Below, piece by piece: positions 5,022 to 44,511 of a stretch of DNA of 64,000 nt. The position numbers and the translations under genes are program-made. Under the pieces are notes generated by a model. It saw nothing but the letters and a program-made list of their open reading frames with translations. It made no database searches and was not told where the DNA came from. The stretch comes from Branchiostoma floridae. Lineage: Eukaryota; Chordata; Leptocardii; Amphioxiformes; Branchiostomatidae. The stretch lies in the NCBI RefSeq assembly GCF_000003815.2, contig NC_049989.1, positions 14,466,983-14,530,982 on the forward strand. Direction: 5' to 3'. How positions within the stretch are numbered: position 1 is the stretch's first letter; every line of letters starts with the position of its first letter.

Positions 5022-8000
5022 TTACACATGGTGGATGAGGTACCCTGAGAACGTGACGTAACCCGTGTAGTCCCCCCACATGGAGGAACGAGCGTCCAGC
5101 TCCACCCAAACCTCGTCCCCAGGCTTCAGTAACAAGATGACGCTGTTACTGCTGGAGAGATGTTCTCCCACCGACTTGTCATACAGACTGATCACAGGTT
5201 CTCCGTGCAGTACCAGCCGACTCCAGTAGGCGGAGCCCTTCACGCTTGTCGTCATGCCAGAGTACGTGAACATGTAGTACCCAGGAATTGGAGTCGTGAA
5301 CTTCCCCGTTGCCATATCGTACGCCCTCCCCTCGTTGGTGTGGAGGATGTTGTACTTCACGATGGTATTTTCCAGGACGTTGACGATCCGGTTAGCTAAG
5401 GCGGCGGAGAACGCCACGAACGGTGCATCTGTTAGTCGGCCGTGCGCGCTCAACACGCCGCCTGCACAGCTACACGGCTTCCCTGGTTCACCCTTGTCTC
5501 CTTTGAACCCTGTCCTCCCCTGGCCACCTGTTTGGCCGTATTCACCCGGTGCACCTGTTTTACCTGGTTTTCCTGGCTCACCTTTCGTTCCCTTCATACC
5601 AGCCATACCTTCAGGTCCCGGTGAGCCAGGGTACCCAGGTGTTCCCTGTCCGCCTTCGAATCCCCTGTCACCAGGGAACCCTCTGTCCCCCTTCTCCCCC
5701 TTGTCTCCCGGTACCCCCCTTGACCCAGGAGGTCCTTGTAGAACGTACGACTCACCGCTGACTGTTATGTAACTTGATTCACCAGGTGCACCTGGTGTGC
5801 CGGAATCACCTTTCTGTCCCTTCTCTCCAGGTAAACCGTTCTCACCTGCTGGACCACGCACCTGCGTTTCTCTCATCTCAGCAGGTTCACCTTTGTCTCC
5901 CTTCTCACCTTGCTGCCCAGGTAACCCAGAAGAACCGGTCATTCCTTGTTCACCTTTCTCACCTGATTTTCCGGGTGCACCTGTGGCACCGACTTTCCCC
6001 TCCTCACCTTTAGCCCCCTTCTTCCCAGTCACTCCCACACCTGGCCGTCCTGCGACACCTGGTGGCCCAAGCGCACCTGTTCCCCCAGGTGCGCCTGTGT
6101 CTCCCTTTTCTCCAGGTGGTCCCAGAGGTGATGGCGTTGTAACACCTGTTCCTCCAGGCTCGCCCTTCGCTCCCTTCTGTCCAGGTGCACCCACACCTGG
6201 CGGCCCCTGCACACCTGCTGCACCTGTCTGTCCTGGGTCACCTTTACTTCCTTTCTCGCCACGCCTACCTGGAAGACCCAGCCATCCAGGGGTTCCTCTC
6301 TCACCTGGCGGGCCCTTTACTCCAGGAAACCCTCTCACACCTGTCACACCTGGCTCGCCTGCAGCACCTTTCTGGCCAGATGGTCCGTGTACACCTTGCG
6401 GTCCTCGCTCTCCCTTCTCACCTGAGGCGCCGGCGGCACCTGGTTCTCCTTCAGCACCTGGAATGCCCATCGGACCCACCAGCCCCATGATGCCGCGGTC
6501 GCCTTTCTTTCCCTTTACGCCAAGGGGTCCTTGCGATCCGGGTTCCCCTACAAAAAAAACAAGCAAACTTCAAAGTATGCTTTCAAACTACACTTATGTC
6601 ATGTTAATGTGTTTACTTAGTACTTCATAATTCAGCTAGCCTGTTTACCGCATAATTATTACAGTTGTCGCGCAATAAAGTTCTTACATGTATAATTAAC
6701 TTTCAGTAAAATCCAGCCATATAACGTTATCTAGCTGCAGTCAGTCGGACAAGTAATGATATGACGACAAGAAGAAACTTCTGTGCCATTCGAGGTATGC
6801 TGACTTTGCTTGGGGAGAAAATAAAAGTGGTGAAAGGATTCGCCTTCAAATAGCGAGCCCTTACGACCTCATAAAGCCGTAAAAAGTCTATGGCACTACC
6901 TTCACCCTAGGTCTGTTCGTGGGTATTGTATGTGGCACAACATAAGTTTCCAAAGTTCAGTGCACCGCCACATTGTCCTTGTCTGTCTGAAAGCAAATAT
7001 AAGAGAATCTTTACAAAAAACTGGGCCTAATTTTGACAATGTCTTCGTAGCTCGCGTCAAGAGGAGCACAGCTCTGATCACAGTCCCTTTTTTCGCTTCT
7101 TACCTATATAAGAAGTTACCCGTGTGCGAAAGAACTTGTAATTACTGTACGTTAGATATGGTAGAAGCCGAAACACATTTTATTTCAAACTGCCCCTTCT
7201 ATGATCAAGAACGGAAAGAGCTCTTAAAAGAAGCCACCAAATTCTATCCTAATATCTCCATGTTTATACACAAAAAGAAAACTACTCTCCATTTAACGTC
7301 GCAAAACCTACACATTACAGAAAAAGTGGGATCTTTCGTCTTCCACTGTCTCAGAAAAAGAAGTCAAACCCAATAAGTTACATCTTTAAGTTAGACTAGA
7401 GTAGTCGCTTACTATACTGTTTTAGTGCTTACTATTATTTGTCTGTCTTTTTTTTCTTTTGTCACCTGCAATTAGCCCTCAGGAAAGAATTTGCAATAAA
7501 CTTATCTATTAATTTTCAAAGGGACATCGACTGAAAACGAGCTGGTGACCACAATAATTAATGTTTAGAAATTTGGTTGATATTACGGCTTCTTACTGTG
7601 CCGAAATTTAAGTTGTTAACCTCATTTCTGTGTGAGGCCGTGAACTTGGTGACAATGGTGATCACCCCTCGTACTCCATATTCATCACAGCCATGTAACG
7701 AGGCAGTACACATGTATCAAAACGCTCCCACACAAAGGCCATGTCACAGCTGGAGGATTGCCATACGTATGGCATGTCGGCCCTTTTGATGTGCCATAGA
7801 ATTTAAGGCTTGTGTAGGTTAAGCAGCATAGCGATGATGATACCCATCGATCTTATTGTACACCACGAAATGTTTAAGCCTTGTCCCACAGCTTGCACAC
7901 AGTCCCACATTTAAGGCCTACATGTCATATTTCCAAACCGGGGCCCGGCCGGGCACCCTTCGGGAGCGAAAAAAACTTTAGTCGTGGGCATTGTGTATAG

Positions 8001-26386: not shown

Positions 26387-29300
26387 TCATACCACTTTGC
26401 CCTCCAGTAGTGCTGACACTTTTTCATGTCCCTTTAACCGTGCTTTGTCCAATGGTGAAAGATTGATGTTGTCTTTGGCACTTACTGAGGCCCCATAATC
26501 CAACAGCATCTTTACTGAGTCACAATGGCCTTGTTCAGAGGCCAAGTGGAGTGCCGTGCAGCCAGCAAAGTCTTTCTCATCAACATCAACCTTGCCAGTT
26601 TCCAACACTAACCTAAGGGCGTCCACGTTACCAGTCCACGCTGCAAGGTGTAGTCCAGTCCCCCCATCTTCTGACTTTATACTGGGATCTCCGCCTTTCT
26701 CAAGAAGAAGCTGGGTAACATCAGGGTTTGTGAGCAGTGCAATATGAAGCGGTGTCTCCCCATCTTCACTAGTTACGTTGGGTAATCCCCCCGCCGCCAA
26801 AAGCACCTGTAGTGTTTGGGCTTGTCCTCTCTCTGCAGCATGGTGCACAGCTGTTATACCATTACAACCTTTTGCATTACTGTCCAGGCCTTTGCTGAGT
26901 AATAGCTCTACCACCTTCACATGCCCATGATATGCAGCCCAGTGGAGTGCAGTATCCCCTTGTTTATCTCTTGTATGTGGATCTGCCCCTATGTCTATGA
27001 GGACTTCAACCACCTCAAAATGGCCTTGTTCAGAGGCCAAGTGGAGTGCCGTGCAGCCAGCAAAGTCTTTCTCATCAACATCAACCTTGCCAGTTTCCAA
27101 CACTAACCTAAGGGCGTCCACGTTACCAGTCCACGCTGCAAGGTGTAGTCCAGTCCCCCCGTCTTCTGACTTTATACTGGGATCTCCACCTTTCTCAAGA
27201 AGAAGCTGGGCAACATCAGGGTTTCTTAGCAGTGCGATATGAAGCGGTGTCTCTCCATCTTCATTAGTCACGTTAGGTGATCCTCCTGCCTGCAGAAGCA
27301 CCTGAAGTGTCTGGGCTTGTCCTCTTTCTGCAGCACGGTGCACAGCTGTTCTGCCATAATAACCTTTTGCATTACTGTCCAGGCCTTTGCTGAGTAATAA
27401 CTCTACCACCTTGACATGCCCATGATATGCAGCCCAGTGGAGTGCTGTATCACCCTGTTTATCTTTTGCATGTGGATCTGCCCCTATGTCTATCAGGTAT
27501 TCCAGGGCTTCGTCGTGTCCCCCAAAAGCCGCTGCATACAGCGGTGTTTTGCCATAGCTGTTTGTTGCATTGACTTCAGCACCTTTCTCAGCAAGAGTTT
27601 TCATCATTGAAACATGGCCATAACTTGTTGCAGAATGTAGCGCTGTGTCACCATACTTATCCGTATCGTCGATGGCTGCCCCTGATGAAAGCAAGACTTC
27701 AACCACTTCCAACTGATTGTCACTAGCGGCAAAATGTAGCGCTGAATAGTTATCGTCTGCTTGTGCATTCAGATCTGCTTTGGAATGTAACAAGTCTTTA
27801 ACGATCAGAGGATACCCTTCCCTAGCTGCTATGTGGAGAGCTGTATGGCCCCATATGTCTTTTTTATTTAGGTCTGCTCCATAAACTAAGAGGTCATTCA
27901 CAACATTTGCATGGCCATTCCATGCCGCGAGATGAAGTGCTGTTAGATTATCATTTCCTGTAGCATCAATATTTGCCCCTATCCATAGAAGTAAATGGAG
28001 TGCGTTGGTTTTCCCTTCTCGGGCAGCAAAGTGAAGTGCAGTGTTACCAAGGCAATCAGTTGCAGAGATATCTGCATTGTGTTCCAACAGCAGTTTAACC
28101 ATACGGACATCACCACTGCCTGCTGCCAAGTGAAGTGCTGTCTCATCCATACGGTTCCTTTCATCAACGTTTGCACCTTTATGTAGCAGATATCTTGTAA
28201 TATTGACATGCCTATTTGCTGCAGCTGAATGAAGTGGCGTGGTTCCCGTTTCATCTTCTATGCTTACTCGGAGATGACCCGACTCTATGACATGCTTAAC
28301 AGACTGGAGGTTGCCTTTTTCACAAGCATCTAGGAGTTGTTTGACATTTTCCTTCCATTGTTGTCCTTCACTTGATGGGGATTCGTCTTCTGGAGATGAC
28401 TTTACTGCCTCTGCATACATGAGACTGTCTGCCTGATATGATGTGCCGGTAGCTTTGGCTGGAGATCTGTAATTCAATGTTTACATTGTAAGTGCACCAT
28501 AATCGATGCTGTTATACAAATTACTTTATTACTACATGGTTGCATCTGACAAACTTATTATAGGTAACTGGTTATGTGTGGCAGAGCACCACTGATGTGG
28601 TTTTTGTATTTTTCAGAAGATAACTGTAATGCTTTCCTGTCATTGCAACTTGCTTGCCTTTTGATAAAACAGAAAGGCAATTTTTACAGATGGGTTGGGG
28701 ACATTGCCATGTACATGTACATTGTATACTGATCGAGTATTACCAAAACAAAAACAGTAGTTCTTGACAGCGAGGTCTAACTACTAACGTTACATTTCTG
28801 TAAGTTACAACAGTCTGCAAGTACCTTTCCTGTGTTTCCTCAACAGCATCTTCATGTGCTGAGTGACATGCCTCCAAGCCTTCCGCACCAGAGTCTGTCA
28901 TCAGCTCCTTAGAATTCCCTGAAAGTACAACAATCATGTACATTATAAGTTAAGTTGCAATATTCACATCATTAATGGGACTAGTATATGATAGTTACGA
29001 CCAAAAATTACTCAAATTTATGCCATGAGTCAGCAAAGCTACATGTATCATTAATTTGCAGTAATGCTGTAGTGTCTGTAGACAATATCATTGCAATGTA
29101 TGCAGTTCACTAGCCAATGCATGTTTAAACTGCAACACTATGGGGGCACCAGCACATACAAATGTACCAACACTCCTTTATCTCCATGAATAATGGAGAT
29201 ATAGTTTTGGGTGTGAGTGTGTCTGTGTTTCTGGATTTTCATAGCATAACTCAAGAACCTCTGGTGGTGTACGTTTGCATGTTTGCCCCCCCCCCCCCCC

Positions 29301-31913
29301 AGCAGTTTGCTTTGGATCTGCAGGTGTAGTTTAATCAAAATCTTGCAAGGAGAACAACTATAGCATCACGGATTTCCATGATATACTTACCTGTGGTTTG
29401 ACCTGTGGTTGTTCCCTCAACATTAGGGGTGAGTGTACAGCCTTTGACAACCGTCAGTTTGTTATCATTTCGAATGCCAGGTGTTGTGCCATTGAAATAA
29501 TGTTTCCACGAGAGGTAGTCCTCTTGCAGTGCCACAGTTGATACACAGAGGGTCTTGTCATCTACAAGATCTCTCATCTCATCCGTGATGGCCAAGTCGG
29601 TAAACTGTTTGGAAAGTTTACCTGTTTTATGAGAGGCCCAGAAATTTTCCAAACCTTTTTCATTGTCAAAATGAATGTGGAATATCACACATCCCTCATA
29701 TGCACGAAGAATTTTTGCATCCCAATTAAACATTGTTTCTATGACTTGTTCTGTCTTCTCTCTTAAGAATGAATCGCTCACCATGTTTTTCATGCTATCT
29801 AATAGTTTCAACCTGTCTTCACCCCAGTCTCTACACTGTTTCAGATCTGTTTCTTTCATGTGCTTTTTCAACAGTTGTTTCTTTGTCTCGTCATCTAGAG
29901 CTAAGTGTAACCCTGGTGGCACTTCTATCTTGATTTCATTCCCGTTTTGGTCTGGCATTCCCGCAGTGAGTACAAGCATCATACCTGCAGTGATGAAATG
30001 GAAAATACATAGGGGTTATGAATATATCTTAAAAGTGCCAGAAAGGAAATGTCTTCCTTCCCAGCTTTTCACAAGGACATGGACTTGTTTCATGTCACAA
30101 GCAATGGTTCATTCAAAATGCCTAAACCATAATACTTTAATATGCTTTTGTAGTTAACCAATGAAGCTACCCGGCATGCTACAATAAAAGAGCTTTGTGG
30201 AACTTAACACCATTGTTTTCCTGATTTTTATCACTGATATTCAAGGATGAAATAATTTTTTTGTATTTTCTTGTTTTCATGCCCACAGTCAGTTGTTTGA
30301 TCATCTTTTTGTTACTTGTCTGGTGATTTTTATACTACTGCCAATAATCTTTGCGCACAATGGGTCATGTGACATGTGTAACATTCAAATACATGTACAT
30401 ACTTCGATTTAGTAGGAAATAGAGATCAAGAGGATAAAGCAGAACATAAATATATAACTTATTTCATCAGAATTACATTTTTCACATCATTATATTTTGC
30501 AACAATAAATAATTTAAGATAGTATGTGTCAGTAAACAATACAAGTAATCTTACTGTCAGGTTTAGCATTGTGTGGACGACTGTAAGGTTTTTCCTTGTG
30601 TGTCTTTCCTTTTGATGTTTCTGCACAGACAAAGAGAAGATCTGTTAGTAAAACACTGGTCCTACAGGGGAGAGGATTCTTTTAGTTGCTACGGCTGAAG
30701 ACCTATGTACCATGTTTCTGTAAATATTGATGTCAATGGTATATCGTCCGTTCAGATTTCTAGCCTAATTAATTAATGCGTTTAGAATTTTAAATTTTTA
30801 AATGTTATGTTTTGTTATCAGAGTTTTAACAATTCTTTTTAACCTTGTAATTAAATGCCGCTATACTTACAGTGTGACTGTGTGACCATCCCCTGTTAGA
30901 GTTTAAGGTAAATCAGTTAAGTTACTATCAATTAGCAATGTCTGATTGTTAATAGTTCCATACCAGATGTTGATGACTTTTTGTTCTCCTTTTCCTCTTT
31001 GGTACTTCCATCCTCAAGGGCTACAAAGAAGAATACAAAACATTCAATTATTACTCTCATATTGACATTCATTGTCAAATATTTTCATGAACTCATGACT
31101 GGACCCTCTGTCTTAATCATGATTATTAATTTTCAGCAAATTGATGTACTTTCAAAAACCAGGTAAGGGAGGATGGGTCTTAATGACTTAATTACCCACT
31201 TCATTCTGGTACTAAGGTTCGAGAACATTCTTCATCAAACACTTTGACAATGTCGTCGTAGATGTCATCGCATGACTGGAACTCGACAGACTGGTTAAAA
31301 TACAAACTGAAGCATGAAGTCCACGCACCAAAGGCCGAAAATAAACTTTAACCTTGGACGTCTTCTCAAGACCTACCCGCATGCCATATATTAAGATAAA
31401 CAATAAATATAATCACAATCAATCCAGAGATCCCTTATCTATCAACTTGAAAGTTACTCAAACAAGTTGCGGCCCACAGGTATCCAGAAACACACAAAGA
31501 CAAGCTATACCTCCATTTTTCATGTAGGTAATATAAAAACTAACTGTCGACTATTATTAAACATCTGTAGCATGATTGACTGCCGAGTAAAATGGGTGCT
31601 CAATACTAATAATCCTAGTGATTTATCCCTGACCTTCTTTCTCCTTTTCAGCAAGCTCATTCAGTTCATCCCCGTATCGTTTTCTGCCGATGTCTGTCAT
31701 CAGGTCCGCCAGAAATGAAAGGTCTCCCGTCTTCAGCACTCCTGCCTCCTCTAACTTGTTGAACATTTGGTGGGCCGTGTCATGTTCGATTGTTCCCCCG
31801 TGTAGCTTTTTGCTGCCGGTAATGAAAGTACGAATGCTCTCCACTTCAGTACTCTTTAGATCTTGCGAGATTCTAAGATAAAGAGCCTGACGAGTTTCTT
31901 GACTTTCCGCCAT
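26387..31913 (-). CDS. DED - TRADD-N-like - ankyrin repeat protein (DED gene 1)
   Basis: Six minus-strand exons: 31634-31913, 30964-31020, 30555-30620, 29391-29984, 28825-28918 and 26387-28466. All junctions are GT-AG with matching phases (1,1,1,1,2), giving 1056 residues. Residues of about 3-88 form a death effector domain (YLRISQDL, FNKLEEAGVLKTGDLSFLAD, LMTDIGRKRYGDEL). A charged linker follows. Residues 136-332 contain EGCVIFHIHFDNEKGLENFW then GKLSKQFTDLAITDEM, resembling the TRADD N-terminal fold; this part is tentative. From about 405 to 1050 there are 19 ankyrin repeats (TALHLAA, GHVKVVELLL), of which repeats 9-13 are duplicated as 14-18. DED proteins self-associate with FADD- or caspase-8-like partners. 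The likely role is a cytosolic adaptor in cell death or immunity. No nuclease, caspase or kinase domain is present. Confidence 0.85.
29146..29330. repeat. Interspersed repeat fragment with poly-C run
   Basis: Contains TAACTCAAGAACCTCTGGTG, GTGAGTGTGTCTGTGTTTCT and a run of about 15 C. It resembles the 'TCTTGAGTTA' part of the GCTGCAGTACCTT family in reverse orientation. It sits in intron 4 of DED gene 1. Confidence 0.45.
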
Positions 31914-32755
31914 TTTACCGGAAGAAACACCTGATGAACTCGCACCTACTGTTCACGGTTCACAAGTCTCTCCTGTTTGTTTTGTCAAGGGCAGCTATTG
32001 GCTAAAAGGTGTTGATTCACTACAGTGTATTTGGTCATGCATAGTAACCAATTGCAATCTAGGACATAAGACGGCTTAGTTTTAAGTCCAACATGTTCCC
32101 GTGGTTGACAGTTCGAACCGTGTTCACTTATATATATCTGTGTGTCCTGAAGGTTATTAATATATTCAGGAAAGAACGAACGTTCTTGACAACCTATAGC
32201 TAGAAAATCTAATTCGTATTTGACCAAGGTCTTGGTTTGACTTAAATACTGTCTCTGATAGCACAGAACGTTGTATTTTCCTTAGAACATAACCTTCTAT
32301 ACTGACTAGTACTAATGAGCACAATCATAATTACAGCCTCGGACCGTGAAAGTCTGCATGTACATCCAAGAGACCCAGCTTCTAGCCTTGTAATTGAGAA
32401 CCTGTCATAATCAGTGCAAACATTACATGTAGAAGTCACTACTCTCATACTCGTATAGTAATGAAATGATAATTCAGTACTTGGAGAAGGGGTGTATCCG
32501 CATACTTTATCTTAGGACATAAGTACTAGTATCTTATGTTCCTTACATCCATGATCAAGGGATTACTTCGGACCCTCGCGTGTCATTATGCGCTGGAGAA
32601 TAAAGAAATAACTTGCTAATACTATAAATCTTCTCTGATTTATGCGACCACAAAAAACTACATATGCATATTATACTCGAAATAGACTATGCTGTACCTG
32701 ATGATGATGATGCAACTAAAATTCATCACCAATCCTAATTTGACTGGATATTTCA
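31914..32755. repeat. Upstream duplication, copy 1 (5' flank of DED gene 1)
   Basis: Matches 35638-36478 at a constant offset of 3724 bases. The first ~70 bases next to the ATG differ at about three positions; the remaining ~770 bases appear identical by eye until a one-T difference just before the N gap. The duplication continues into the DED exon (31634-31913 versus 35358-35637), which is noticeably less similar. This region should hold the promoter of the gene. Confidence 0.92.
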
Positions 32756-33364
32756 TCTTTCAGTACCATTGAACCAAGAGTGACGTGGCAAAATAAACAA
32801 TCCAACGATTTTAGTTCAACTCATCTAATCGAATTTTCTGTATTCTACTGTCTTTGTCTTTGCTATCATTGAAGTAAATGCGCCACTTTGCTCTGAATCA
32901 AAGCTAATGCTGAGCCAAAGGTCATACATTTACTAAAGCAAATACTACACTTTGAACAGCTTGGAGACGTCATAGATCCATGAAATAATCAGAGCTTTTG
33001 CAAATCTCTTGTTTCATCTTGTCTCATTGATTATGCACTGAGTAAGGCTGTGATCAATATACTTTATTTCAAATGATTGTAGAGAAAGTCGTTTCCATAC
33101 AGTATTCCTTGTATTTCTTTATAAACTATGAAAGTGACTTCTGTTATTACACGATTTACGTATTGTAATATGCATCATGGCACTTTTGCATCGATTTTGT
33201 AAATTATGTCCTCATTTGCCTAATTATATCTGTAGATGTTTAACCTACCATGCATTACATAGGGTACATGTATCACATCCCTTTACATTTTCCTATGCAC
33301 TATTCCGATTGACTCGACGTCGGTAACCACACGTATGTTCCTTCGATTTCTTCCAGAACCAAAG
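32756..33364. other. Intergenic between DED genes 1 and 2
   Basis: No coding sequence recognised. It should contain the 3' UTR of the minus-strand DED-TIR gene and the distal upstream region of DED gene 1. Confidence 0.5.
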
Positions 33365-35637
33365 CTATTCCTTTAGCCTCTGCTCAAGACTAGTGATAAG
33401 GTCGTTAAGTTTTGCTCCCTTCCAAGGATGTTCCTTGGATTCTTTTGTGAAGTCGATGTACAATAGCTGTGCAAACGGCATGGCCATGGGGCCCTCTGGC
33501 GGCCAGGCCGTTTTCTCCAGCAGGACGGGCACCAGAGGTTTCTTCAGCCTGTACGCAAGTTCGACTTCGTTCTGACAGCTGTCAGACTTGGTGTAATTCG
33601 GAGTGACGCAGCTGATGACGACCTACAGAGAACGCATGGACAAAAACATAGAATTACTTACCTAGGTGTCAGTAATCCTTTATAGAAAAGCATGTAACTC
33701 CTTGGAAATGGTTGTGGTCAGATTTTCAAATACTCCTGAATCAACGGAGTATCCAAGCTAATGTTTTATCTGTGCAGACAGATAAGAACTAAGAATCAAA
33801 TCGTGAAGATGAGGCGGCAATCTTTGGGCATTTTGTAATTCAAAGGAATTTCATTGATGAAGAGTGCATTTTGTATGCTTTGTACGTTTTTTTTTCTTCA
33901 AGATGTTAGTAACAGAATAAGTCAAAACTTGTTATACCTGAATATAAGCCTTCTCACATTAGTTAGGACGCATATGTGCGGCGACAGGAATTCTAGGTAA
34001 TATGTCGAAGGGTAAGGCACACAATAAGTAAACAGTCCTTGTCTTGACCATTGTTTTGATTTGCATAACAACGTCCATACGGGTTTTGTTTACTTTTTGT
34101 GTGCCTTACCCTTTGACATATTACCTAGAACTCCTGTCGCCGCACATATGCGCTCTAACTAATGTGAGAAGGCTTATAAGGCTATAAGGTACACTAATCG
34201 GTACGTTGCTATCTGGTATTTTGACCCTGTACCTTAATGGTTTTCACGGCATTGTAACCAGTACCCAGTACCGGTACACATCCCTACTCTAGAATATACA
34301 GCATTGAAAGTCTAACCTTGGCTTGCCTTATGCCCCTGTCTATCTCCGCATGCAGTTTGTCTCCACCGCCCATCTTCGTAATGTCCATCCAGCAGCTGTA
34401 GCCCTTCTTCTCCAGCACATCACGGAGCTGGATCACCTAATGTAGACATCGTGTGAGAGTGTCCCTTTTTAATTTCGGTTCAAATACAGGTATGGGTGAT
34501 AAGTATTGTATTTGGTAAATGTTTCGTGAGCCAAATGACCCGCTATTTGACACAGCAGTAGAAGGGCCAATACCCCGCGGCTGTTTCATTCTCTATATTT
34601 GCATTTAAAACATTTTAATAAGTTTTTGGCCAAAATCCCGCGCCCTGGTGTTGCAACCAAATGATCTATAATTTGATTTGGGGGTACCGGTACGTTGGAA
34701 ATATGGTCATAGAATTTCATTTAAACACTTGATTAATTTGATTAAATACCCAAATTTTTTATCATACACACAAAATGTTCGTTAGAAAAAAAAGGGAATG
34801 TATATGACGCAGCATATATTCCGAAACGTTATAACGACCAAATGGTATCCTGCGTCTCTGATTGGTCGGACCCGGCCATGTGATCTTAAGTTGGGAATCC
34901 TCCCTTGCGGGCGATTCGAAATTAATATCGTCCTTCACGTCCAACTTAAATTTTCATTTTCACACCTGTCAGTGATAGAACATTATGTTTTTTCCTACCT
35001 GTTTCTGGTGGTCCCACTGGTAGGACAGGAACACTTGCACCGGCCCGGGGTCGGGAGTGCTCTCCATCGTTAGGGTTACTTCCTTCTCGGGAGACTTACC
35101 TACACGGAGACATACACATAGTTACGACTTAGGCCGCAGTCACGTTCATTCGTGCGATCGTCGTATTAAAGATGGCAAACTGACGGCATTTTTGGATAGT
35201 CGCGCATGTGTCGTGGAAAATTCAGCTGTCTTGTTAACAAAATGGCTGTCCTTTCTTTTCTAAACAACGAACCATAGTTCGCTTCTTTTTCCAGCCGGGC
35301 TTAGACTAAGACATCTGCATCTTCATCTGGTTGAATTTTCAAAGAAACCAAACAAACCTCCTTTTTCCCTTTCAGCAAGCTCATTCAGTTCATCCGCGTA
35401 CACTTGTCTGCCGATTTTTGCCATCAGGTCCGCCAAAAATGAAAGGTTTCCCGTCTTCAGCACTCCTGCATCCTCTAACTTGTTGAACATTTGGTGGGCC
35501 GTGTTACCTTCGATTGTTCCCCCGTGTAGCTTTTTGCTGCCGGTAATGAAAGTACGAATGTTGTCTACTTCAGTACTCGTTAGATCTTGCGAGATTCTAA
35601 GATAAAGGGTCTGACGAGTTTCTTGACTTTCCGCCAT
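33365..35637 (-). CDS. DED-TIR fusion protein (DED gene 2)
   Basis: Four minus-strand exons: 35358-35637, 34999-35099, 34317-34436 and 33365-33622, GT-AG with phases 1, 0, 0. They give 252 residues. Residues 3-88 are a death effector domain (YLRISQDLTSTEV, KTGNLSFLADLMAKIGR). After a short linker, residues of about 113-250 are a TIR domain: VQVFLSYQWDHQKQ (strand A, box 1), GYSCWMDITKMGGGDKL (BB loop), VVISCVTPNY, then CQNEVELAYRLKKPLVPVLL. Glu186 in CQNEVE aligns with the glutamate that is catalytic in NAD-cleaving TIRs such as SARM1. Either scaffold or NADase function is possible. The intron joining DED and TIR is only 258 bases, which supports one transcript; the donor GTTTGT is weak. An alternative is two separate genes with TIR translation starting at ATGGAGAGC near 35068. 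Confidence 0.82.
33943..34178. mobile_element. Palindromic MITE in DED-TIR intron
   Basis: Ends TATAAGCCTTCTCACATTAG and CTAATGTGAGAAGGCTTATA are exact inverted repeats, and the arms continue through GCATATGTGCGGCGACAGG. Stem of about 95 bases, loop of about 50. A TA target duplication is plausible. Confidence 0.88.
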
Positions 35638-36478
35638 TTTACCGGAAGAAACACCTGATGAACTGACACCTACTGTTCACGGTTCACAGGTCTCTCCTGT
35701 TTGTTTTGTCAAGGGCAGCTATTGGCTAAAAGGTGTTGATTCACTACAGTGTATTTGGTCATGCATAGTAACCAATTGCAATCTAGGACATAAGACGGCT
35801 TAGTTTTAAGTCCAACATGTTCCCGTGGTTGACAGTTCGAACCGTGTTCACTTATATATATCTGTGTGTCCTGAAGGTTATTAATATATTCAGGAAAGAA
35901 CGAACGTTCTTGACAACCTATAGCTAGAAAATCTAATTCGTATTTGACCAAGGTCTTGGTTTGACTTAAATACTGTCTCTGATAGCACAGAACGTTGTAT
36001 TTTCCTTAGAACATAACCTTCTATACTGACTAGTACTAATGAGCACAATCATAATTACAGCCTCGGACCGTGAAAGTCTGCATGTACATCCAAGAGACCC
36101 AGCTTCTAGCCTTGTAATTGAGAACCTGTCATAATCAGTGCAAACATTACATGTAGAAGTCACTACTCTCATACTCGTATAGTAATGAAATGATAATTCA
36201 GTACTTGGAGAAGGGGTGTATCCGCATACTTTATCTTAGGACATAAGTACTAGTATCTTATGTTCCTTACATCCATGATCAAGGGATTACTTCGGACCCT
36301 CGCGTGTCATTATGCGCTGGAGAATAAAGAAATAACTTGCTAATACTATAAATCTTCTCTGATTTATGCGACCACAAAAAACTACATATGCATATTATAC
36401 TCGAAATAGACTATGCTGTACCTGATGATGATGATGCAACTAAAATTCATCACCAATCCTAATTTGACTGGATATTCA
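35638..36478. repeat. Upstream duplication, copy 2 (5' flank of DED gene 2)
   Basis: The partner of 31914-32755. It runs straight into the 36480 assembly gap, so the true end of the duplicated block cannot be seen. Confidence 0.92.
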
Positions 36479-36479
36479 T

Positions 36480-36579
36480 NNNNNNNNNNNNNNNNNNNNN
36501 NNNNNNNNNNNNNNNNNNNNNNNNNNNNNNNNNNNNNNNNNNNNNNNNNNNNNNNNNNNNNNNNNNNNNNNNNNNNNNN
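36480..36579. other. Assembly gap (100 N)
   Basis: A run of 100 N directly at the end of the near-identical duplication, a place where repeat or haplotype collapse is likely. Confidence 0.99.
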
Positions 36580-37695
36580 AAAAAGTCCATAGAGAGCCTG
36601 CTATGGAGGCTAAGCCATTGGCCATAAGCTATGCTGTTGATTCACTACCGTATTTGGAAATGTTGTAATCTAAGACATTCTAGGACAAACACCTCCTTGG
36701 CAATCGACCCATGTATTCTACACGTGTTTATACATGCATGTGTCATTATAGTGTGTGTTATATTAAGTCCAGGAAGATTAGTGGCATGCCCTAGGGCACG
36801 TCACTGATGGATTTTCAAATAATTTAAAGTCTCAAGGTCTCATTATGTGTCGGAAGAGTAATAGTTCTCGTGTGTGAAAGAACGACATTAATCATCAAGA
36901 TTTGATGCCATAGGTTAATCGAGAAACTAAGCTTTACCTAATAACCAACAATGTAAAATTTAACAGATGGGACCTACCCAAATGTGGCTATAATTTATAA
37001 CGTTATGAAACGCACAAAACTGAAGCAGTCGGATTATGATGCACGTTTTGTGAATGCCTCAAGAAAAGCTGATATGATATACTGATAATTAATTTCACAT
37101 TTGGTTATGTCGACGTCGTACTACAAGGGTTCATCTTCACTACATGGAAAGCAACAAATGATTTCATTCAAGCTCTGAATGTTTTCTGTGCAACATTATA
37201 ACATGTTCACGTCATATACCAAAACGAGCTGACACGGCAAAGAAAATATATTTGATTTCAAGCACTACAGATAAAGTGTTAAATCTCCCAATTCAACACT
37301 CGACTACAAGAACGTAGGAGGCCTTGACAATTGGTGTGAATGTATACAAATTAAGATAATACAACAAAATTGCATTTGTCACAGGTAAGGAAACCATTAA
37401 TTCTATTTAATTTTTCAAAATTCATCTATGCAGACTTGCTCCCGTGAGTTTCTTTGAAATATCACACCTTAACAATCTTCATTGTCGACATGTCAAATAC
37501 TCGTATTTGTAGCTGATTTCTCTCTTTGCTACTATACGTGAAAACACTCGGTACACACGTGCTGGTTTATTCAATGCAAACTTGATCTCTTCTAAAACAT
37601 GGACTGTATTCCAAGTTAACAAAACTTTGCTGAGTCTGTGACTTCTATTTTACAATTCTTCGAGACGATGAACTGGTCTTCCTTTTTTCACGAGT
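36580..37695. other. Intergenic, no gene recognised
   Basis: A/T-rich sequence without a supported reading frame, RNA gene or repeat structure that I could identify. Confidence 0.5.
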
Positions 37696-38033
37696 TTTGT
37701 GTGCTAAGATGATGCCGTGTCTGTAAAGTGTAAAGTGTAAGATTAGGAAAAAGCCCCGTTTTTCTCACTGAGAGTGGTGGGTCATTGTCACAAGCTTTTG
37801 ACAATTAACCCCGGTGGTTAATGAGCAGTGTCTGTAAAGTGTAAATGTAAGCTTTGGAAAAACAGCCTCGAATTTTTCAGGGCCTGTGTGCTAACATGAT
37901 GCCGTGTCTGTAAAGTGTAAAGTGTAAGATTTGGAAAAACAGCCTCGGTTTTTTCTCAGGGACTGTATGCTAAGATAGCCGTGTCTGTAAAGAGTGAAGT
38001 GTAAGATTAGGAAAGGCCTCCATTTTTCTTGAC
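37696..38033. repeat. ~95-bp degenerate tandem repeat
   Basis: Four copies sharing GCCGTGTCTGTAAAGTGTAA, then a variant of GATTAGGAAAAAGCC, a run of T and C, and CTGTGTGCTAAGATGAT. A 38057-38092 scrap of the ACAACGGATATAGG MITE follows immediately. Confidence 0.75.
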
Positions 38034-38109
38034 ATCCCTAAATAACCTTTTTTTTTCACCAACGGATATAGATTACCCCGCGGATAATTGTGAAATAGCG
38101 TTAACACTG

Positions 38110-38599
38110 CCAGCCTGTATTGTATGAGGATACCGATTGGCAAGTACGGTAAGATGATATTGATACAAAACATCTATTTTATTGCTTATAAGTGCAGTTT
38201 GTACAGTATTGGCCGGCTGCAATATGGAATTTAGTCAAATTTAATGTGTCTCAAGCGTGTGGTTTGTGATAACAAGAAAATGATACTTTATTTCACATGC
38301 GGTCACCGTACAAACAATTGAAAGATGACAATGCATTGAAAAGCACAAAGAAGCACGACCTCGTCTATAGTGCAAGAAAACACTATAGATGCAAAAATCG
38401 TAGCTTCTGTAGCAATCTGTGTGATGATGAGAATCCAGTGATCCCATAGACTATACACCATATAATGGCAAGATATTTAACTGTTATTGTGTTCCATATA
38501 TCTTTTATGTAATCAATGGAAAGTGTAATTGTGAGCAGACTGTTCTTGAAGATACTGTGTAGTATTGTCGAATATCATATTGACCATTATTAGTGAAAG
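38110..38599. other. Intergenic, no gene recognised
   Basis: No coding or repeat structure identified between the MITE scrap and the octamer-rich repeat. Confidence 0.45.
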
Positions 38600-39655
38600 T
38601 TGAAACCTATATCATTCAAGAAACTAGACTTCAACGAACACATACCTTTGCCAAATAAACCAGGTTTGTTATATAGAATGATGTCTGTAGACATAAATGT
38701 GTTACTCATTACATTTTATTTTATATGCCTGGAGTTGGTTCATAACATTTCGCCATTGCTTATGCAAATTAGATCCCTATGCAGATTAGATTTACATAAT
38801 AATATTAAATTGTATCAAGCATCATTTGCATAATAAATGTGTATTGATATTTCCTTCTTTCTTAGCTAAAAATGTGACAAGTTTGAAAGTCCTATAAGGA
38901 ATGCAGTGGATTTACAAACTTTTCTCATTAATTATGCAAATTAGCAGTCGATTTGCATAATTATAATTCCATCATGTAAGTCTTCCCTTTGGCTATCTAC
39001 ATACCAAAAACCATGACGATCCGTCAACACGTTTATATTTTCTCATTAATTATGCAAATGAGGCCGTCATTTGCATAATTAATATGCATTGATATTTCTC
39101 TCTTCCTCATCTATATATGTGACAAGTTTGAAAGTCCTATCATGAAATGCAGTGGATTTATAAACTTTCCTCATTTATTATGCAAATTAGTTGCTGATTT
39201 GCATAATTGGTATTCCATTGTGTACATTGTTACTTGGGCTATCTACATACCAAAAACCATGACGATCCATCTACACGTTCTCGAGTTATTCTCGTCCAAA
39301 GTTTGAAAGGAAATCGGCGACTGCAGTTCCAAACAAGCCGCTAGGGGGTCCAAACTTAAAGCACTTACTCTCTGCACTAAGGGCTATCTACCACTCAAAA
39401 ATCATAACCATAGCAGGTCCAGAACACGAGATAAAAAAAATTGAGGTTTTGCTGCAGTACCTTAGCAAGCCGCTAGGGGACCCATTATCGAACTTGACCT
39501 TCGTTTTCCCGACCCCTACCCACCTACCAAATATTATTGGGATCCATCAAAGGCTTCTTGAGTTATACTGTTAACACACAGACAGACACACAGACAGACA
39601 CACAGACTCACAAGCCTAAAACATAACCTTAGCCATTCTGGCAAAGGTAACAAAG
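38600..39655. repeat. Octamer-palindrome repeat plus GCTGCAGTACCTT tail
   Basis: Positions 38600-39345 hold inverted-orientation copies of the ~245-bp block seen at 10850-11765. They contain TTATGCAAATTAGCAGTCGA, TTTGCATAATT, 'GACAAGTTTGAAAGTCCTAT' and 'ACCAAAAACCATGACGATCC'. Positions 39385-39655 are a copy of the tail family also at 9832-10055 and 4452-4705, with CACAGACAGACACACAGAC microsatellite. The same two modules are adjacent in both places, so they form one composite repeat. Confidence 0.8.
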
Positions 39656-39749
39656 GTAATGATGTAGACGTAACTCTGACTTTGACTTCTCGGAAAAGCG
39701 GACCATGCATCTAGTGAGCTCTCGTGATTACTTTGTAAGTTTTCGTTTA

Positions 39750-41854
39750 TTATCGCCTTCTTTCTAATAGGCCAACAATATGTTCATGATTCCCAAGCTT
39801 GAGGATCTCCATGAACACATCAGGCGTGCACTTTCCCTGCCGACTCAGGAGGTCCAGTAGAGCTTCGGCCTTCCCCTGTGTGGTGGTTTTGCTGTTGATG
39901 TCTTCCTTCTCATCAATCAGCAATAATCCCCTCTCGATGAGATGTGGGAACAGGCTCGACACCTGCAGCCTCTTTGTCAGCAATACGCGGTTTCTGGTGA
40001 TCAGAGCTTCTAATTCTTCTGCAGACCCTTTGTCTGAAAAAACGAGAATGTGTTATCGTTGAAGAGATTCACGCAAGTCTTGACCTAGTTCTCGCAACTC
40101 TCGAGAACTAGGTCACTCCGTGAGCAAGATCAAAAATTTGGAGGTACGTTTGCTTACTTTTAATAACAGTCACTGATTGATGAAAAATTATATTAACTGA
40201 GAATGTGTTAGTATTGAAAACTTTATTCCAAAAGATTATGAACAATCATTCCGTGTTGAGGGGTTTCTAAACAGAGAGTGGCAACTTCTATACTAGTAGG
40301 TAACAAACAAACAAACAAAAAAACAACTTCTCCCTAAAGAAGTGGTGGGTAAAATGGAATAAATCTGAATATTCTTACCAGCAGTTGGAGTAATGTTTGG
40401 ACGACCGCAAGGCTTCTTTTCGCGAACCTCCCCCTTTGTGTTTCCTGTATGTATGGACGAAAGAAGACGGAAACTTTGTTTAGTGTATTCCTTTACTCCT
40501 TTTCATTGGTTCGTTTCTGTAATAGTATCACATGTCTCCATGAACAGTTGCATTAGGTTGGTATGTCACTGAATAAAGAGATTCTTTTTACACAACCACA
40601 GCATTATTTTCACGGCAACGTTCATGATAGAAGTTCATAAAATATGGAAATATATGAAAATAAAGCCGTGGTTGTGTAAAGCAGAGTCTCCATATTCAGA
40701 TATTACATGCCATTCACACGACAGCTTCTAGTGTTAACCAGTGATTATTTGCACATTCATTCGCCATCTTACTCTAAAGAATTTGCTACTCTCTGTTCGA
40801 TAGATAAATTCAAGTACATTCTGGGAGGCGATAACCCTCACTGTGTACAAGGAGGCAAATATATCCACGAATGTTTACACCGTAGAACCAATAGTGTAAA
40901 TAACATGCTAAATCCAATATGTTGACTTATTCATACCTATAGATATCCATATATGTCTGTTTAGTTGTAGTGTAAGTAGTTGTTATACATGTAGTCCTTA
41001 CGAAAGTCGCTGTACCTTTGTCGTATCAATAAAGATTTCTATAAGGGACTGCCAAACAAAATGATCACAAAGTTTCCTAATCTTAAGGAAAAAAGAACGA
41101 TCGTTGTTTTTTGCAGCCTTCTCAACAACACCTACAGAAGTCATACAGAACAGTAGACTTACAAAATCTTTAGAACCCTTATAGTCTTGAGAGAAAACAA
41201 ACAAACAACTGAAATCTAGATTCGTAATGCTGTCGACATCAAAAGGTCAAAATCGAGACAAACACACAGAGTGCTGTAGGCAGAGTACTTCCGGGTCTAT
41301 ACTGTGTTTGTATAGTATCAAGTTAAGTTAAATAGTACTTCGTACAGTACTTGAAATGTATGTAAAATATAGAGAAATACTCTTAGACTATATTTTTAGT
41401 AGGTCAACAATCGTCAAACAAGCAAGTTTCGGGTAGTCACGTTGTGAATTTGTGATTTTGAAGTTTCACTTTCATCAGTCAGTTAGTAAATACTGTAAGC
41501 AAGGAACATATACAAATGTACATGATATAGGCTAGCATAACACGCACTAGAAGAGAATTATTTCATCCCACCTTCACTCTCTTGCTCGGCTATCTCATTC
41601 GCTGCCTCGGCAAACTCCTGTCTGTCGATACTTTCCATAAGTTTCACCAAAAACGAAAGGTCTCCCTTTTTTAAGATCCTTTTGCGTTCTAGCATGTTGA
41701 ACATCTCCTGGGCAGTGGCACGCTGGATGGAGCCCGTTGGTAGTTGCTTGCCTCCGATGTAACCGCGAATGTCGCTGACTTCTTCATCAGTGAGTTCTCT
41801 CGAAATTTCCAGGTATAGGTCCTGACGAGTACGTCTTTCGTCTGCTCCCGCCAT
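39750..41854 (-). CDS. DED-CARD adaptor protein (DED gene 3)
   Basis: Three minus-strand exons: 41572-41854, 40379-40444 and 39750-40033. Junctions are GT-AG and phase 1 at both introns; the product is 210 residues. Residues of about 8-92 are a death effector domain (LYLEISRELTDEEVSDIRGY, MLERKRILKKGDLSFLVKLM, ESIDRQEF). A short basic linker follows (TKGEVREKKPCGRPN). Residues of about 121-208 are a CARD: ALITRNRVLLTKRLQVSSLF, PHLIERGLLLIDEKEDINS, KAEALLDLLSRQGKCTPDVF and ILKLGNHEHIVGLL. A DED joined to a CARD would bridge FADD/caspase-8-type and CARD-type assemblies. No catalytic domain is present. It is clearly paralogous to DED gene 4 in its first exon. Intron 1 contains LINE debris and a small hairpin. 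Confidence 0.85.
40573..40698. mobile_element. Small hairpin element in DED-CARD intron
   Basis: Inverted segments GATTCTTTTTACACAACCAC and GTGGTTGTGTAAAGCAGAGTC flank an A/T-rich loop. Confidence 0.55.
40707..40925 (+). mobile_element. LINE fragment, RT C-terminal end
   Basis: The peptide DYLHIHSPSYSKEFATLCSI, then DKFKYILGG and KYIHECLHRRT, resembles the very end of non-LTR polyproteins, where an alpha-helical 'DKF-x-LL...KYI-x-x-C-x-x-R' tail is common. Only the last ~70 codons remain. It lies in the DED-CARD intron on the opposite strand. Confidence 0.5.
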
Positions 41855-42394
41855 TTTTCACTACGGTAGGCGACTGCACACAAAGCACCTGGTGAACGCG
41901 CCCCTGCCAGGGTCACCTGGGCTATTCTATTCTGCCTTGGGGGTGATTTTAAGTGACTTATTTGTTTAACCTCAGACGGCAGTGCTCGTTGTATATATAT
42001 ATAGCTTCATAGAGAAATATATTTTCCTTATATTTCCTTACCTTCTATCTTCTTGATGACTTGAAGACCTAGAATTTCGCATGTTATATATTTCTTGAAT
42101 TGATGGTCCCTATTTCGTCAGTTAGGCATTCCAAGGTCGTTGACCGCACATTCTTCTGGTAGCTCGAAAATGAAACCTTAACTCTGTGATGCTTCTGAAA
42201 AATCTTTTCTAGAGTTAACGCGAAACTCACAGTGCTGATGCTCGATACAAACCTTCTGACTATCTGTTCTGCAGTACAAAAGCCCATAATACTACAGAAC
42301 TTTATTGCATGACACCTGTACGGGATACACTGTATGGCAACTTGTACATACAATACATACAGTCACTCCTGCTCATTGACCCACCTAATCTCCG

Positions 42395-42610
42395 AGCAGA
42401 TGTTAGGAGGCTGAATTGTTACGTTTTCCCAGCTGCCTGTTTCCGTTACAAACTGCCTCCCTAACAAGTTTGTAACCGAAAAAGGCAGCAAGGAAAACTC
42501 TATTTAACCTCCGAAGTGGCGCAGTATCGCCCACCCACTCACTCATAAGGTAGATAAAACCTCCAGTGCTCTCATTCATACCACAGTGTTTCAACGGCAT
42601 GCATTGGAAT
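42395..42610. repeat. Upstream homology block of DED gene 3
   Basis: Diverged but collinear with 45118-45330 upstream of DED gene 4. Shared landmarks are ATCTCCGAGCAGATG, CAGCTGCCTGTTTCCGTTAC, AACAAGTTTGTAAC and CATACCACAGTG. It shows that the gene 3/4 duplication took at least about 1 kb of upstream DNA. Confidence 0.7.
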
Positions 42611-42895
42611 CATCCAGCAGTGACTTTTTCTACAATTATCTTTATTCATATTTCAGAAACAATGAAACATGTGTATACACAAAAGAGTAAAGAATAAAGA
42701 ATAACTTTTAAAGATGTATTCTAAGTGATCACATTTTCTTTTCAAACACGTATATTCATACATAAAGAACCTTATAATGTTTCCTTCCTGTAGGACTAGG
42801 AATGCAGTAATTATATCACTGCTCATGACCATGACAAGACAGACTTGCATTTTGTAAACTCTACAGCAAAGGGCGATGATCAATGAGGAGAATCT

Positions 42896-43331
42896 AATTT
42901 AAAGTCTTTCTTGTGCAAGTGTTCTTCCTTACTTATATGCAAGTGTTCTTCCTTTCTTGTGTAAGAGTTCTTCCTTTCTTGTGCAAGTGTTCTTCCTTTC
43001 TTGTGCAAGTGTTCTTCCTTTCTTGTGCAAGTGTTCTTCCTTTCTTGTGTAAGTGTTCTTCCTTTCTTGTGCAAGAGTTCTTCCTTTCTTGTGCAAGTGT
43101 TCTCTCTTTCTTGTGCAAGTGTTCTTCCTTTCTTGTGCAAGAGTTCTTCCTTTCTTGTGCAAGAGTTCTTCCTTTCTTGTGCAAGTGTTCTCTCTTTCTT
43201 GTGCAAGAGTTCTTCCTTTCTTGTGCAAGAGTTCTTCCTTTCTTGTGCAAGTGTTCTCTCTTTCTTGTGCAAGTGTTCTTCCTTTCTTGTGCAAGTGTTC
43301 TTCCTTTCTTGTGTAAGTGTTCTTCCTTTCA
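42896..43331. repeat. 22-bp minisatellite, open in all six frames
   Basis: About 19 copies of a 22-base unit, GTTCTTCCTTTCTTGTGCAA plus two bases. Variants are AGTGTT/AGAGTT, TTCTTC/TCTCTC and GTGC/GTGT. Because 22 is not a multiple of three, each frame reads the same 22-residue cycle, and none of the six frames contains a stop over roughly 200-400 bases. It directly abuts the last coding exon of DED gene 4. Confidence 0.95.
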
Positions 43332-43333
43332 GT

Positions 43334-44511
43334 TTAGTCGCCAGATGATGGTTTCCTATTGTCGTCTTGTTTGGCCTTTCCCTTCACAAGAGCTGGAAAG
43401 CATACAGAACAGGTGATCACAACAGTAGACTTAGGCTAACATCACATTTCCAAACCGGGGCCCGGCCGGGCTGTTTGTGGAAACGAAAAATAGAAATGTA
43501 TACGTAGAGATATACACAAATAATGCCCACGACTATTCTCTTGACGTCTTGTGTAATTTGGTGTCTTTTATGTCATACTTTTCCTTCCCGAAAGCTGCCC
43601 GGTCGGGCCCCGGTTTGGAAATGTGACGTAGGCCTTCAGCTAAGGTCACATTTCCAAACCGGACCCCGGCCGAGGTGTTTGCGGAAACAAAAAATAAAAC
43701 TGTCTATCAAGGAATATACACAGATTATGCTACAGACTATTTCTTTTACGTTCTGCGTGTTCTGTTGTCTTTTACATCATTCTCTTCGTTTCCCAAAGCT
43801 GGCCGGCCGGGCCCCGGTTTGACCTTAGCCTTACAGATCTTTCAGCAGTTTTGAGTGAAAAACTAAAATCTAGATTAGAAAACTCTGTCAAAAGGCTAGG
43901 TGAAAATCCAGACCATTCATGCACTGTATAGCCAGGTTCCGGATTCGTACCTATGTTTGTTTATATTGATCATCAGTAATATACACATTGAATCCATAAA
44001 GCCATAACTCCTGAGTTTCTTAGAATACTACCTCCGAACGAGACTTGTAGTGTATGTAGAGAAATAAGAAACATTCTATAGTCTGAACAGAGCAACAATC
44101 ATCCAAAAGGAGACGTTCGGGTGAATTTTTTTGCGTAGTTTCACTTTCATTCAATCTAACGTGATCTAACGTTACATGCTGTAGGCTGAAATGAAAAGTA
44201 CTAAAAGAGAACTATTTTATCCCACCTTCCCTCTCCTGCTCGGCTATCTCATTCGCTGCGTCGGCAAAGTCCTGTCTGTCGATACTTTCCATAACTTTCG
44301 CCAAAAACGAAAGGTCTCCCTTTTTGGACACCCCTTTTCGTTCCAGCTTGTTGAACATCTCCTGGGCGGTGGCACGCTGGATGGAGCCCGCCGGTAGTAC
44401 TTTACTGCCGCCGATGTAAGTGCGAATGTCGCAGACTTCTTCATCAGTGAGTTCTCTCGAAATTTCTAGATAGAGGTCCTGACGAGTGCGTCTGCCTTCT
44501 TCTGCTGCCAT
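43334..44511 (-). CDS. Short DED protein, probably truncated paralogue (DED gene 4)
   Basis: Two minus-strand exons, 44226-44511 and 43334-43392 (phase 1), give 114 residues. The first ~94 are a death effector domain close to that of DED gene 3 (LYLEISRELTDEEVCDIRTY, KKGDLSFLAKVMESIDRQ). Exon 2 reads ALVKGKAKQDDNRKPSSGD then stop. That exon is alignable with exon 2 of DED gene 1 (ALEDGSTKEEKENKKSSTS). In gene 1 the donor follows ...TCTG|GT; at the same place gene 4 has TCTG|GC and reads on to TAA two codons later, right beside the 22-bp minisatellite. The likely story is loss of a splice donor and of a downstream effector exon, leaving a DED-only product that could act as a dominant regulator. 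Whether it is expressed is unknown. Confidence 0.65.
43432..43830. mobile_element. Two adjacent MITEs, CCGGGGCCCGGCCGGG family
   Basis: Copy 1 (43432-43634) has ends AGGCTAACATCACATTTCC + AAACCGGGGCCCGGCCGGG and the complement CCCCGGTTTGGAAATGTGAC. Copy 2 (43639-43830) is a diverged copy in tandem (CTAAGGTCACATTTCCAAAC ... GGCCCCGGTTTGACCTTAG). Both cores hold GACTATT and a TTTTCCTTCCCGAAAGCTG-like stretch. They lie in the DED gene 4 intron. Confidence 0.85.

What the first reader, a model, noticed from the sequence alone, without database searches (positions are those of the whole stretch)
26387..44511. Cluster of four DED genes built from one phase-1 N-terminal exon joined to different effectors
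Seen: four minus-strand genes whose first exon (280, 280, 283 and 286 bases) encodes a death effector domain and ends in phase 1. Downstream exons encode ankyrin repeats with a TRADD-N-like region, a TIR, a CARD, or a stop. Known: phase-1 symmetry lets exons be shuffled without frame damage, and amphioxus has many novel death-fold combinations. Inferred: the cluster is a modular set of DED-tagged adaptors that could feed one DED filament with different outputs, possibly an undescribed local immune or cell-death module.
Basis: partly seen in the sequence, partly recalled or inferred. Interest (0 to 1): 0.87.

Follow-up and report, generated by a model that had tools for sequence, protein, structure and literature searches.

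The report
Shuffled DED adaptor gene cluster, lancelet
Four neighbouring genes, probably from a lancelet, begin with copies of the same death-effector-domain exon and at least three continue into different immune-type domains, a real but largely expected case of the gene-part shuffling already known in these animals.

Summary
Four minus-strand first exons (280, 280, 283, 286 b) encode DEDs and end in phase 1. Pfam (each just below cut-off), a PDB profile search and a fold search agree on DED. In-frame models give DED–TRADD-N–ankyrin (1056 aa), DED–TIR (252 aa) and DED–linker–CARD (210 aa). The fourth (114 aa) runs into a stop and looks decayed.

Added here: the four DEDs form one clade (98/96) inside a genome-wide family of phase-1 DED exons; members lie upstream of NACHT-LRR, TRADD-N, Death, OTU or GT4 domains. 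Gene C's TIR exons are 81-85% identical, with the same internal intron borders, to a TIR gene on another contig; the CARD has 75-76% kin elsewhere. Parts were copied in or out, probably through phase-1 introns.

Caveats: no transcript evidence; gene C's upstream block, 787 bp identical to gene D's, ends at an assembly gap. Amphioxus ASC proteins with a DED replacing PYD, and DED–TRADD-N proteins with variable tails, are in print. Likely function: adaptors recruited through their DED (inferred). New variant of a known kind.

The parts
44226..44511 (-). Gene A exon 1, DED4 (286 b, ends phase 1)
43334..43392 (-). Gene A exon 2 by in-frame splice model; placed by me opposite gene D exon 2 although the alignment is weak; GT donor absent there (gcgact), reads to TAA; 114-aa protein
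   Evidence: by eye
41572..41854 (-). Gene B exon 1, DED3 (283 b, ends phase 1)
41016..41131 (-). Possible alternative exon of gene B; ends phase 0, so out of frame with the linker and CARD exons; read on, it reaches a stop
40379..40444 (-). Gene B linker exon (66 b, phase 1-1), similar to gene D linker (39 of 66 b identical)
39750..40033 (-). Gene B CARD exon with stop; DED-linker-CARD of 210 aa
35358..35637 (-). Gene C exon 1, DED2 (280 b, ends phase 1)
34999..35099 (-). Gene C TIR exon 1 of 3 (phase 1 to 0)
34317..34436 (-). Gene C TIR exon 2 of 3 (phase 0-0)
33365..33622 (-). Gene C TIR exon 3 of 3 with stop; DED-TIR of 252 aa
31634..31913 (-). Gene D exon 1, DED1 (280 b, ends phase 1, weak donor GTCAGG)
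30964..31020 (-). Gene D exon 2 (57 b, phase 1-1)
30555..30620 (-). Gene D linker exon (66 b, phase 1-1)
29391..29984 (-). Gene D TRADD-N-like exon (594 b, phase 1-1)
28825..28918 (-). Gene D linker exon (94 b, phase 1 to 2)
26387..28466 (-). Gene D ankyrin exon (18 Ank stretches) with stop; includes a near-duplicate 495-b unit 26520-27497
31914..32752 (-). Upstream block of gene D, 836 of 839 b identical to that of gene C
35638..36476 (-). Upstream block of gene C, ends 3 b before the 100-N gap 36480-36579

Best explanation
Shown by sequence: local duplication of a gene with a DED first exon gave four copies, and three sit in frame before different bodies (CARD, TIR, TRADD-N plus ankyrin). 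The DED joins all fall at phase-1 junctions. Close kin of the TIR and CARD lie at other loci where no DED match was seen (3 kb upstream and the DED lists for the TIR; the DED lists alone for the CARD). Inferred: the proteins are adaptors. Their DED would be recruited, by DED-DED contact, onto upstream DED proteins (the same DED subfamily lies upstream of NACHT-LRR exons in this genome), and each tail would give its own output: CARD bridging to CARD proteins as ASC does, a TIR resembling NADase-type TIRs acting as scaffold or NADase, and TRADD-N with ankyrin repeats as a binding scaffold. Gene A is a truncated copy, possibly a DED-only decoy, more likely decayed. Likelihood: structure and origin about 0.7; adaptor function about 0.4; one shared DED partner about 0.2.
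For: DED identity. Open reading frames through all joins in C and D and B. One local clade, 98/96 support, pairs 100/99 and 96/91. Linker shared by B and D, 39 of 66 b, the best non-self offset on that strand of the window (next 33). TIR kin on contig C2 (L048): 71% aa, 81-85% DNA over three exons with internal introns at the same places, first exon entering in phase 1, dN/dS 0.45. No hit to the ten window query proteins (four DEDs, two linkers, CARD, TIR, TRADD-N, ANK) below E 0.1 in 3 kb upstream of that TIR. CARD kin on contig C158, 75-76% aa, dN/dS 0.14-0.18. Phase-1 GT near the end of 21 of 22 other DED exons: two of them read by eye. Downstream domains. Amphioxus DED-bearing ASC proteins bind a caspase through the DED: PMC3196919 passages.
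Against: No RNA evidence for any join. Gene D's donor GTCAGG is weak. Gene A is truncated. DED1/DED2 evolve at dN = dS = 0.087, fitting relaxed as well as adaptive change. They lack the acidic residue of R-x-D[YFL], which 21 of 21 subfamily relatives keep as D or E (the two more distant DEDs, in L043 and L024 at 6442, also lack it). The identical upstream block abuts a gap. At the other loci the domains are only downstream on the same strand; splicing was not modelled there. The direction of TIR and CARD copying is not determined. In print, the prodomains of bbtCaspase-8 and bbtCaspase3-like did not bind the ASC DEDs, so DED contacts are selective.
Confidence: 0.6

Rival explanations
1. Birth-and-death debris: tandem copies of a DED exon landed beside other immune exons, and several fusions are non-functional or decaying.
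For: Gene A reads into a stop where gene D has a donor. DED1/DED2 show dN/dS of 1. One of 22 related DED exons elsewhere shows a frame break. Lancelet dispensable genes are enriched for death and death effector domains (PMC12373286 passages).
Against: Open frames across 6, 4 and 3 exons in D, C and B; dN/dS 0.45 for the TIR and 0.14-0.18 for the CARD against outside kin.
Confidence: 0.25
2. Part of the cluster is an assembly product: gene C's upstream block, perhaps with DED2, is a misplaced or homogenised copy of gene D's next to the gap.
For: 787 b without a difference, then 23 of 280 differing in the exon and no alignable intron; similarity ends 3 b from the gap 36480-36579. A perfect 787-b run has probability about 6e-30 at a divergence of 0.082.
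Against: The exon sequences differ, so DED2 is not simply DED1 reread. The block was found only at these two places in the assembly. Recent gene conversion gives the same pattern.
Confidence: 0.2
3. The four DED exons are alternative first exons with separate promoters of one or two transcription units, since many acceptors downstream of them in the cluster fit phase 1.
For: Same strand, 1.5-4.1 kb between models, phase-1 acceptors at linker, CARD, first TIR and TRADD-N exons.
Against: Genes B and C each have a complete in-frame end with a stop before the next DED exon.
Confidence: 0.08

Closest known systems
Amphioxus bbtASC-S and bbtASC-L (PMC3196919; passages seen)
   Same: Reported as ASC homologues with an N-terminal DED in place of PYD; gene B has DED-linker-CARD
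   Different: The passages seen do not state the CARD, which I take from the name ASC. Orthology of gene B not tested; another DED followed by a CARD lies on contig C15 (L043), which the DED tree does not place with the window DEDs, though joining them is not rejected (p-AU 0.17)
DED-TRADD-N proteins of Branchiostoma and other marine animals (PMC8195603; passages seen)
   Same: Constant DED plus TRADD-N with a variable C-terminal part; ankyrin tails are described for cnidarians and the sponge Amphimedon
   Different: Gene D's TRADD-N is divergent, below Pfam's cut-off, and absent from the 69 genome matches to that model
MyD88 (death domain plus TIR; recalled)
   Same: Short adaptor with an N-terminal death-fold domain and a C-terminal TIR
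   Different: Gene C has a DED, and its TIR matches TIR_2 best; its 5 PDB matches up to E 0.01 are Cat1, AbTIR and three others named TIR, which I recall as bacterial
Amphioxus domain-shuffled 'direct connection' proteins (PMC2575513; passages seen)
   Same: Novel joins of DED, TIR, CARD and NACHT with other domains in the same genus; DED-NACHT confirmed there by cDNA
   Different: The passages seen do not name DED-TIR or this cluster

Membership tests
Death effector domain | Sequence match to PF01335 | tested here: inconclusive
   4 of 4 match at E 1e-8 to 2.4e-7, but 0 of 4 reach the curated cut-off of 35.9 bits
Death effector domain | Six-helix death fold closest to DEDs | tested here: met
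   Model pLDDT 84, six helices; the 50 printed Foldseek rows of 105 are all DED proteins, TM to the FADD-DED chain 9u6e_B 0.72/0.77, best E 0.013
Death effector domain | R-x-D-L-like motif (recalled as a DED hallmark) | tested here: inconclusive
   DED4 RQDF, DED3 RQEF; DED1 RKRY and DED2 RQVY lack the acid
Vertebrate ASC (PYD-CARD) | N-terminal PYD | tested here: not met
   Gene B has a DED
Amphioxus ASC | N-terminal DED with CARD | tested here: met
   Gene B model: DED, 66-b linker exon, CARD E 1.4e-15; splicing not shown
Amphioxus ASC | Orthology to bbtASC and binding to caspase-1/2 | not testable with these tools
   bbtASC sequences not at hand; no binding assay
TRADD-N | Sequence relation to known TRADD-N domains | tested here: met
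   hhalign A2 (3 rows) against A3 (4 rows, 2 of them above Pfam's cut-off): 97.5%, E 5e-12; direct Pfam match weak, 0.0036, and none for its closest kin in L046
TRADD-N | RRM-like alpha+beta fold | tested here: inconclusive
   Single-sequence model unusable, pLDDT 38
TIR NADase | TIR fold with the catalytic glutamate column (recalled) | tested here: inconclusive
   TIR_2 E 1.5e-28; a Glu aligns with Cat1 and 3h16 at that place; activity not testable
MyD88 | Death domain plus TIR | tested here: not met
   The N-terminal domain matches DED and not Death at E up to 1

The most novel reading that the evidence does not exclude
The cluster is an adaptor hub for the lancelet's DED-NACHT-LRR receptors: one DED type serves as a shared address on sensors and adaptors, and CARD, TIR and TRADD-N tails give parallel inflammasome-like outputs, with a DED-only copy as brake. 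Recent copying or conversion of a promoter-plus-DED block would place new bodies under the same control. The DED-for-PYD swap on both NLRs and ASC is already remarked in PMC3196919 (passage), so the new part is the several-output hub.
Probability: 0.15. Interest if true: 0.65.

Novelty: new variant of a known kind. Interest (0 to 1): 0.42.

Why it matters
It is a compact natural case in which one N-terminal adaptor exon stands before three different signalling tails, with the outside kin of two tails still visible at close range. If transcribed, it would show how lancelets rewire death-fold signalling, and it offers a direct test of whether DED-bearing receptors and adaptors pair. The DED-TIR join did not appear under six fixed phrases in one open library, which is weak evidence that it is unreported.

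Tried and rejected
Single-sequence folding of the TRADD-N exon gave pLDDT 38 and was dropped. The first DED tree held a row, L001, translated on the wrong strand, and gave the window clade 94/83; that row was left out and the tree rebuilt with 31 rows. A tree with L043's DED joined to the window clade is neither supported nor rejected (p-AU 0.17). A gene B model using exon 41016-41131 breaks frame and was replaced by DED-linker-CARD. Another copy of the duplicated upstream block elsewhere in the assembly was sought and not found. The intron between DED2 and TIR carries a dispersed repeat (35 of 38 matches); repeats are common and no mechanism is claimed from it. Pfam named no domain in L046's TRADD-N-like exon, so gene D's assignment rests mainly. 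Of the 20 stretches fetched (L023/L040 and L029/L038 overlap), I sent ORFs of only some to Pfam: 20 chosen ORFs from L023, L025, L026, L027, L029, L031, L032, L033, L034, L039, L042 and L043. No ORF of L024, L028, L030, L035, L036, L037, L038, L040 or L041 was sent, so their downstream domains are unknown. Huang et al. 2008 on amphioxus immune genes could not be read.
Full report
WHAT IS THERE. The window is part of contig C11 of a 513-Mb genome held as 431 contigs. That it is Branchiostoma floridae is my inference from size and content, not a tool result. On the minus strand four exons encode DEDs: 44226-44511 (gene A), 41572-41854 (gene B), 35358-35637 (gene C), 31634-31913 (gene D). Each starts at an ATG and ends one base into a codon before a GT. 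Each matches Pfam DED at E 1e-8 to 2.4e-7 but stays below the curated cut-off. The four-row profile has 11 PDB matches at E up to 1, of which the 9 best are caspase-8 chains. The AlphaFold model (pLDDT 84) has six helices, and the 50 printed Foldseek rows of 105 are all DED proteins such as FLIP, caspase-8 and FADD (best E 0.013, TM to the query up to 0.76). tblastn of the four against the window found no fifth copy; the only other hit is 20 residues at E 0.98.

GENE MODELS. With GT-AG introns and the reading frame kept, gene D is DED, two short phase 1-1 exons, a 594-b phase 1-1 TRADD-N-like exon, a linker and a 2080-b ankyrin exon: 1056 aa. Gene C is DED plus a TIR over three exons: 252 aa. 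Gene B is DED, a 66-b phase 1-1 linker and a CARD: 210 aa; the exon at 41016-41131 that I first placed between them breaks frame. Gene A reads from its second exon into a stop. I place that exon opposite gene D's exon 2, where D has a GT donor and A has GC, but the alignment is weak. The domains are TIR_2 E 1.5e-28, CARD 1.4e-15, ankyrin 4.7e-137 and TRADD-like_N 0.0036. TRADD-N is strengthened by profile-profile comparison of gene D and two kin (A2) with four loci matching TRADD-like_N, two of them above its cut-off (A3): 97.5%, E 5e-12.

ORIGIN OF THE PARTS. In a tree of 31 DED rows the four window DEDs are one clade (98/96), with C+D (100/99) and A+B (96/91) as pairs. They belong to a larger set: DED1 finds 59 matches among 73 candidates at E up to 0.01. 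Of 22 DED exons examined outside the window (21 of the main set plus L043), 21 have a phase-1 GT within 13 b of the end of the DED match; the 22nd, L042, shows a frame break. Two of the 21 use GTTTGT, which the script's filter missed and I read from its output. A further, more distant DED in L024 is ambiguous. Downstream on the same strand lie NACHT with LRRs (L025, L027, L033, L042), OTU and GT4 (L023), TRADD-N (L034 and L039 above cut-off; L026 and L032 below), Death (L029 and L039; L031 below cut-off) and CARD (L043). Splicing was not modelled there, and no ORF of nine of the stretches was sent to Pfam (listed under Tried and rejected).

Gene C's last TIR exon is closest to TIR exons on contig C2 (71% and 74% aa; 20 matches among 25 candidates, itself included). 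The copy in L048 keeps all three exons at 81-85% DNA identity, with internal introns at the same places and a phase-1 entry read by eye (dN/dS 0.45, dS 0.36). Its first exon begins further upstream than gene C's, and no hit to the ten window query proteins with E below 0.1 lies in the 3 kb before it. Gene B's CARD is 75-76% identical to CARDs on contig C158 (48 matches among 105 candidates, itself included; dN/dS 0.14-0.18), whose coding sequence fits a phase-1 entry, as read by eye. No DED match on C158 is listed, of which one search is a capped list. Gene D's TRADD-N has 35 matches among 66 candidates, itself included; several lie near CARD or TIR matches. The B and D linker exons share 39 of 66 bases, the best non-self offset on that strand of the window (next 33). 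Copying of parts is thus well supported; its direction is not known.

THE ODD DUPLICATE. Upstream of DED1 and DED2, 836 of 839 bases are identical, with 787 perfect; the exon differs at 23 of 280 bases, and the introns do not align. By codon the exon shows 5 synonymous and 18 non-synonymous changes (dN = dS = 0.087). Differences rise from the upstream end to the exon's 3' end. The identical block ends 3 b from a 100-N gap and was found only at these two places in the assembly. Recent gene conversion or an assembly fault would both explain it; I cannot choose.

HOW IT WOULD WORK. Shown: DED-fold N-termini and the attached domain types in open frames. Inferred: recruitment by DED-DED contact, then CARD, TIR or TRADD-N/ankyrin output. 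In print, two amphioxus ASC homologues with a DED in place of PYD bind the prodomain of bbtCaspase-1/2 through their DED, while the prodomains of bbtCaspase-8 and bbtCaspase3-like did not bind (PMC3196919, passages). The same passages say that amphioxus NLRs also have DED for PYD. Gene C's TIR has 5 PDB matches up to E 0.01, Cat1, AbTIR and three others named TIR, with a Glu at the place I recall as catalytic. Against one shared filament: the R-x-D[YFL] acid is D in 20 and E in 1 of 21 subfamily relatives, D in DED4 and E in DED3, but absent in DED1 (R) and DED2 (V); the two more distant DEDs (L043, and L024 at 6442) also lack it.

KNOWN OR NEW. Zhang et al. 2008 (PMC2575513, passages) describe amphioxus joins involving TIR, DED, CARD and NACHT, and report a DED-NACHT cDNA. 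Kaur et al. 2021 (PMC8195603, passages) describe DED plus TRADD-N with variable tails in Branchiostoma, and ankyrin tails in cnidarians and the sponge Amphimedon. Six fixed phrases for DED-TIR and DED-CARD returned one irrelevant paper (listing). 'Exon shuffling' with amphioxus, phase 1 and death returned three, none on these genes by title (listing). Phrase searches of one open library are weak evidence of absence. I therefore call the cluster a new variant of a known kind.

Noticed in passing
31914-32752 and 35638-36476: Upstream regions of genes D and C are identical over 787 b while the adjoining DED exons differ at 23 of 280 b; the block abuts a 100-N gap. Gene conversion or assembly fault.
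   Followed up: partly
35122-35259: The short intron between DED2 and the TIR holds a dispersed repeat found at 35 other places.
   Followed up: partly
42906-43330: A 22-b minisatellite of about 19 copies lies just downstream of truncated gene A, open in several frames.
   Followed up: no
5025-6569: Minus-strand collagen plus C1q-domain protein.
   Followed up: no
62361-62636: TRAF-type zinc finger exon on the plus strand, about 18 kb from the DED cluster.
   Followed up: no
L045, L046: On contig C12, TIR-like exons precede TRADD-N-like exons on the same strand (Pfam TIR_2 tested in L046 only), and CARD matches lie nearby; Pfam names no domain in L046's TRADD-N-like exon.
   Followed up: partly
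G000 C19:8165283-8178454: Four TIR and four DED matches alternate in tandem on one strand, suggesting TIR-DED genes.
   Followed up: no
G000 C17:18.28-18.90 Mb: Very large tandem array of DED and TRADD-N matches; possibly the DED-TRADD-N-WD40 expansion described in PMC8195603.
   Followed up: no
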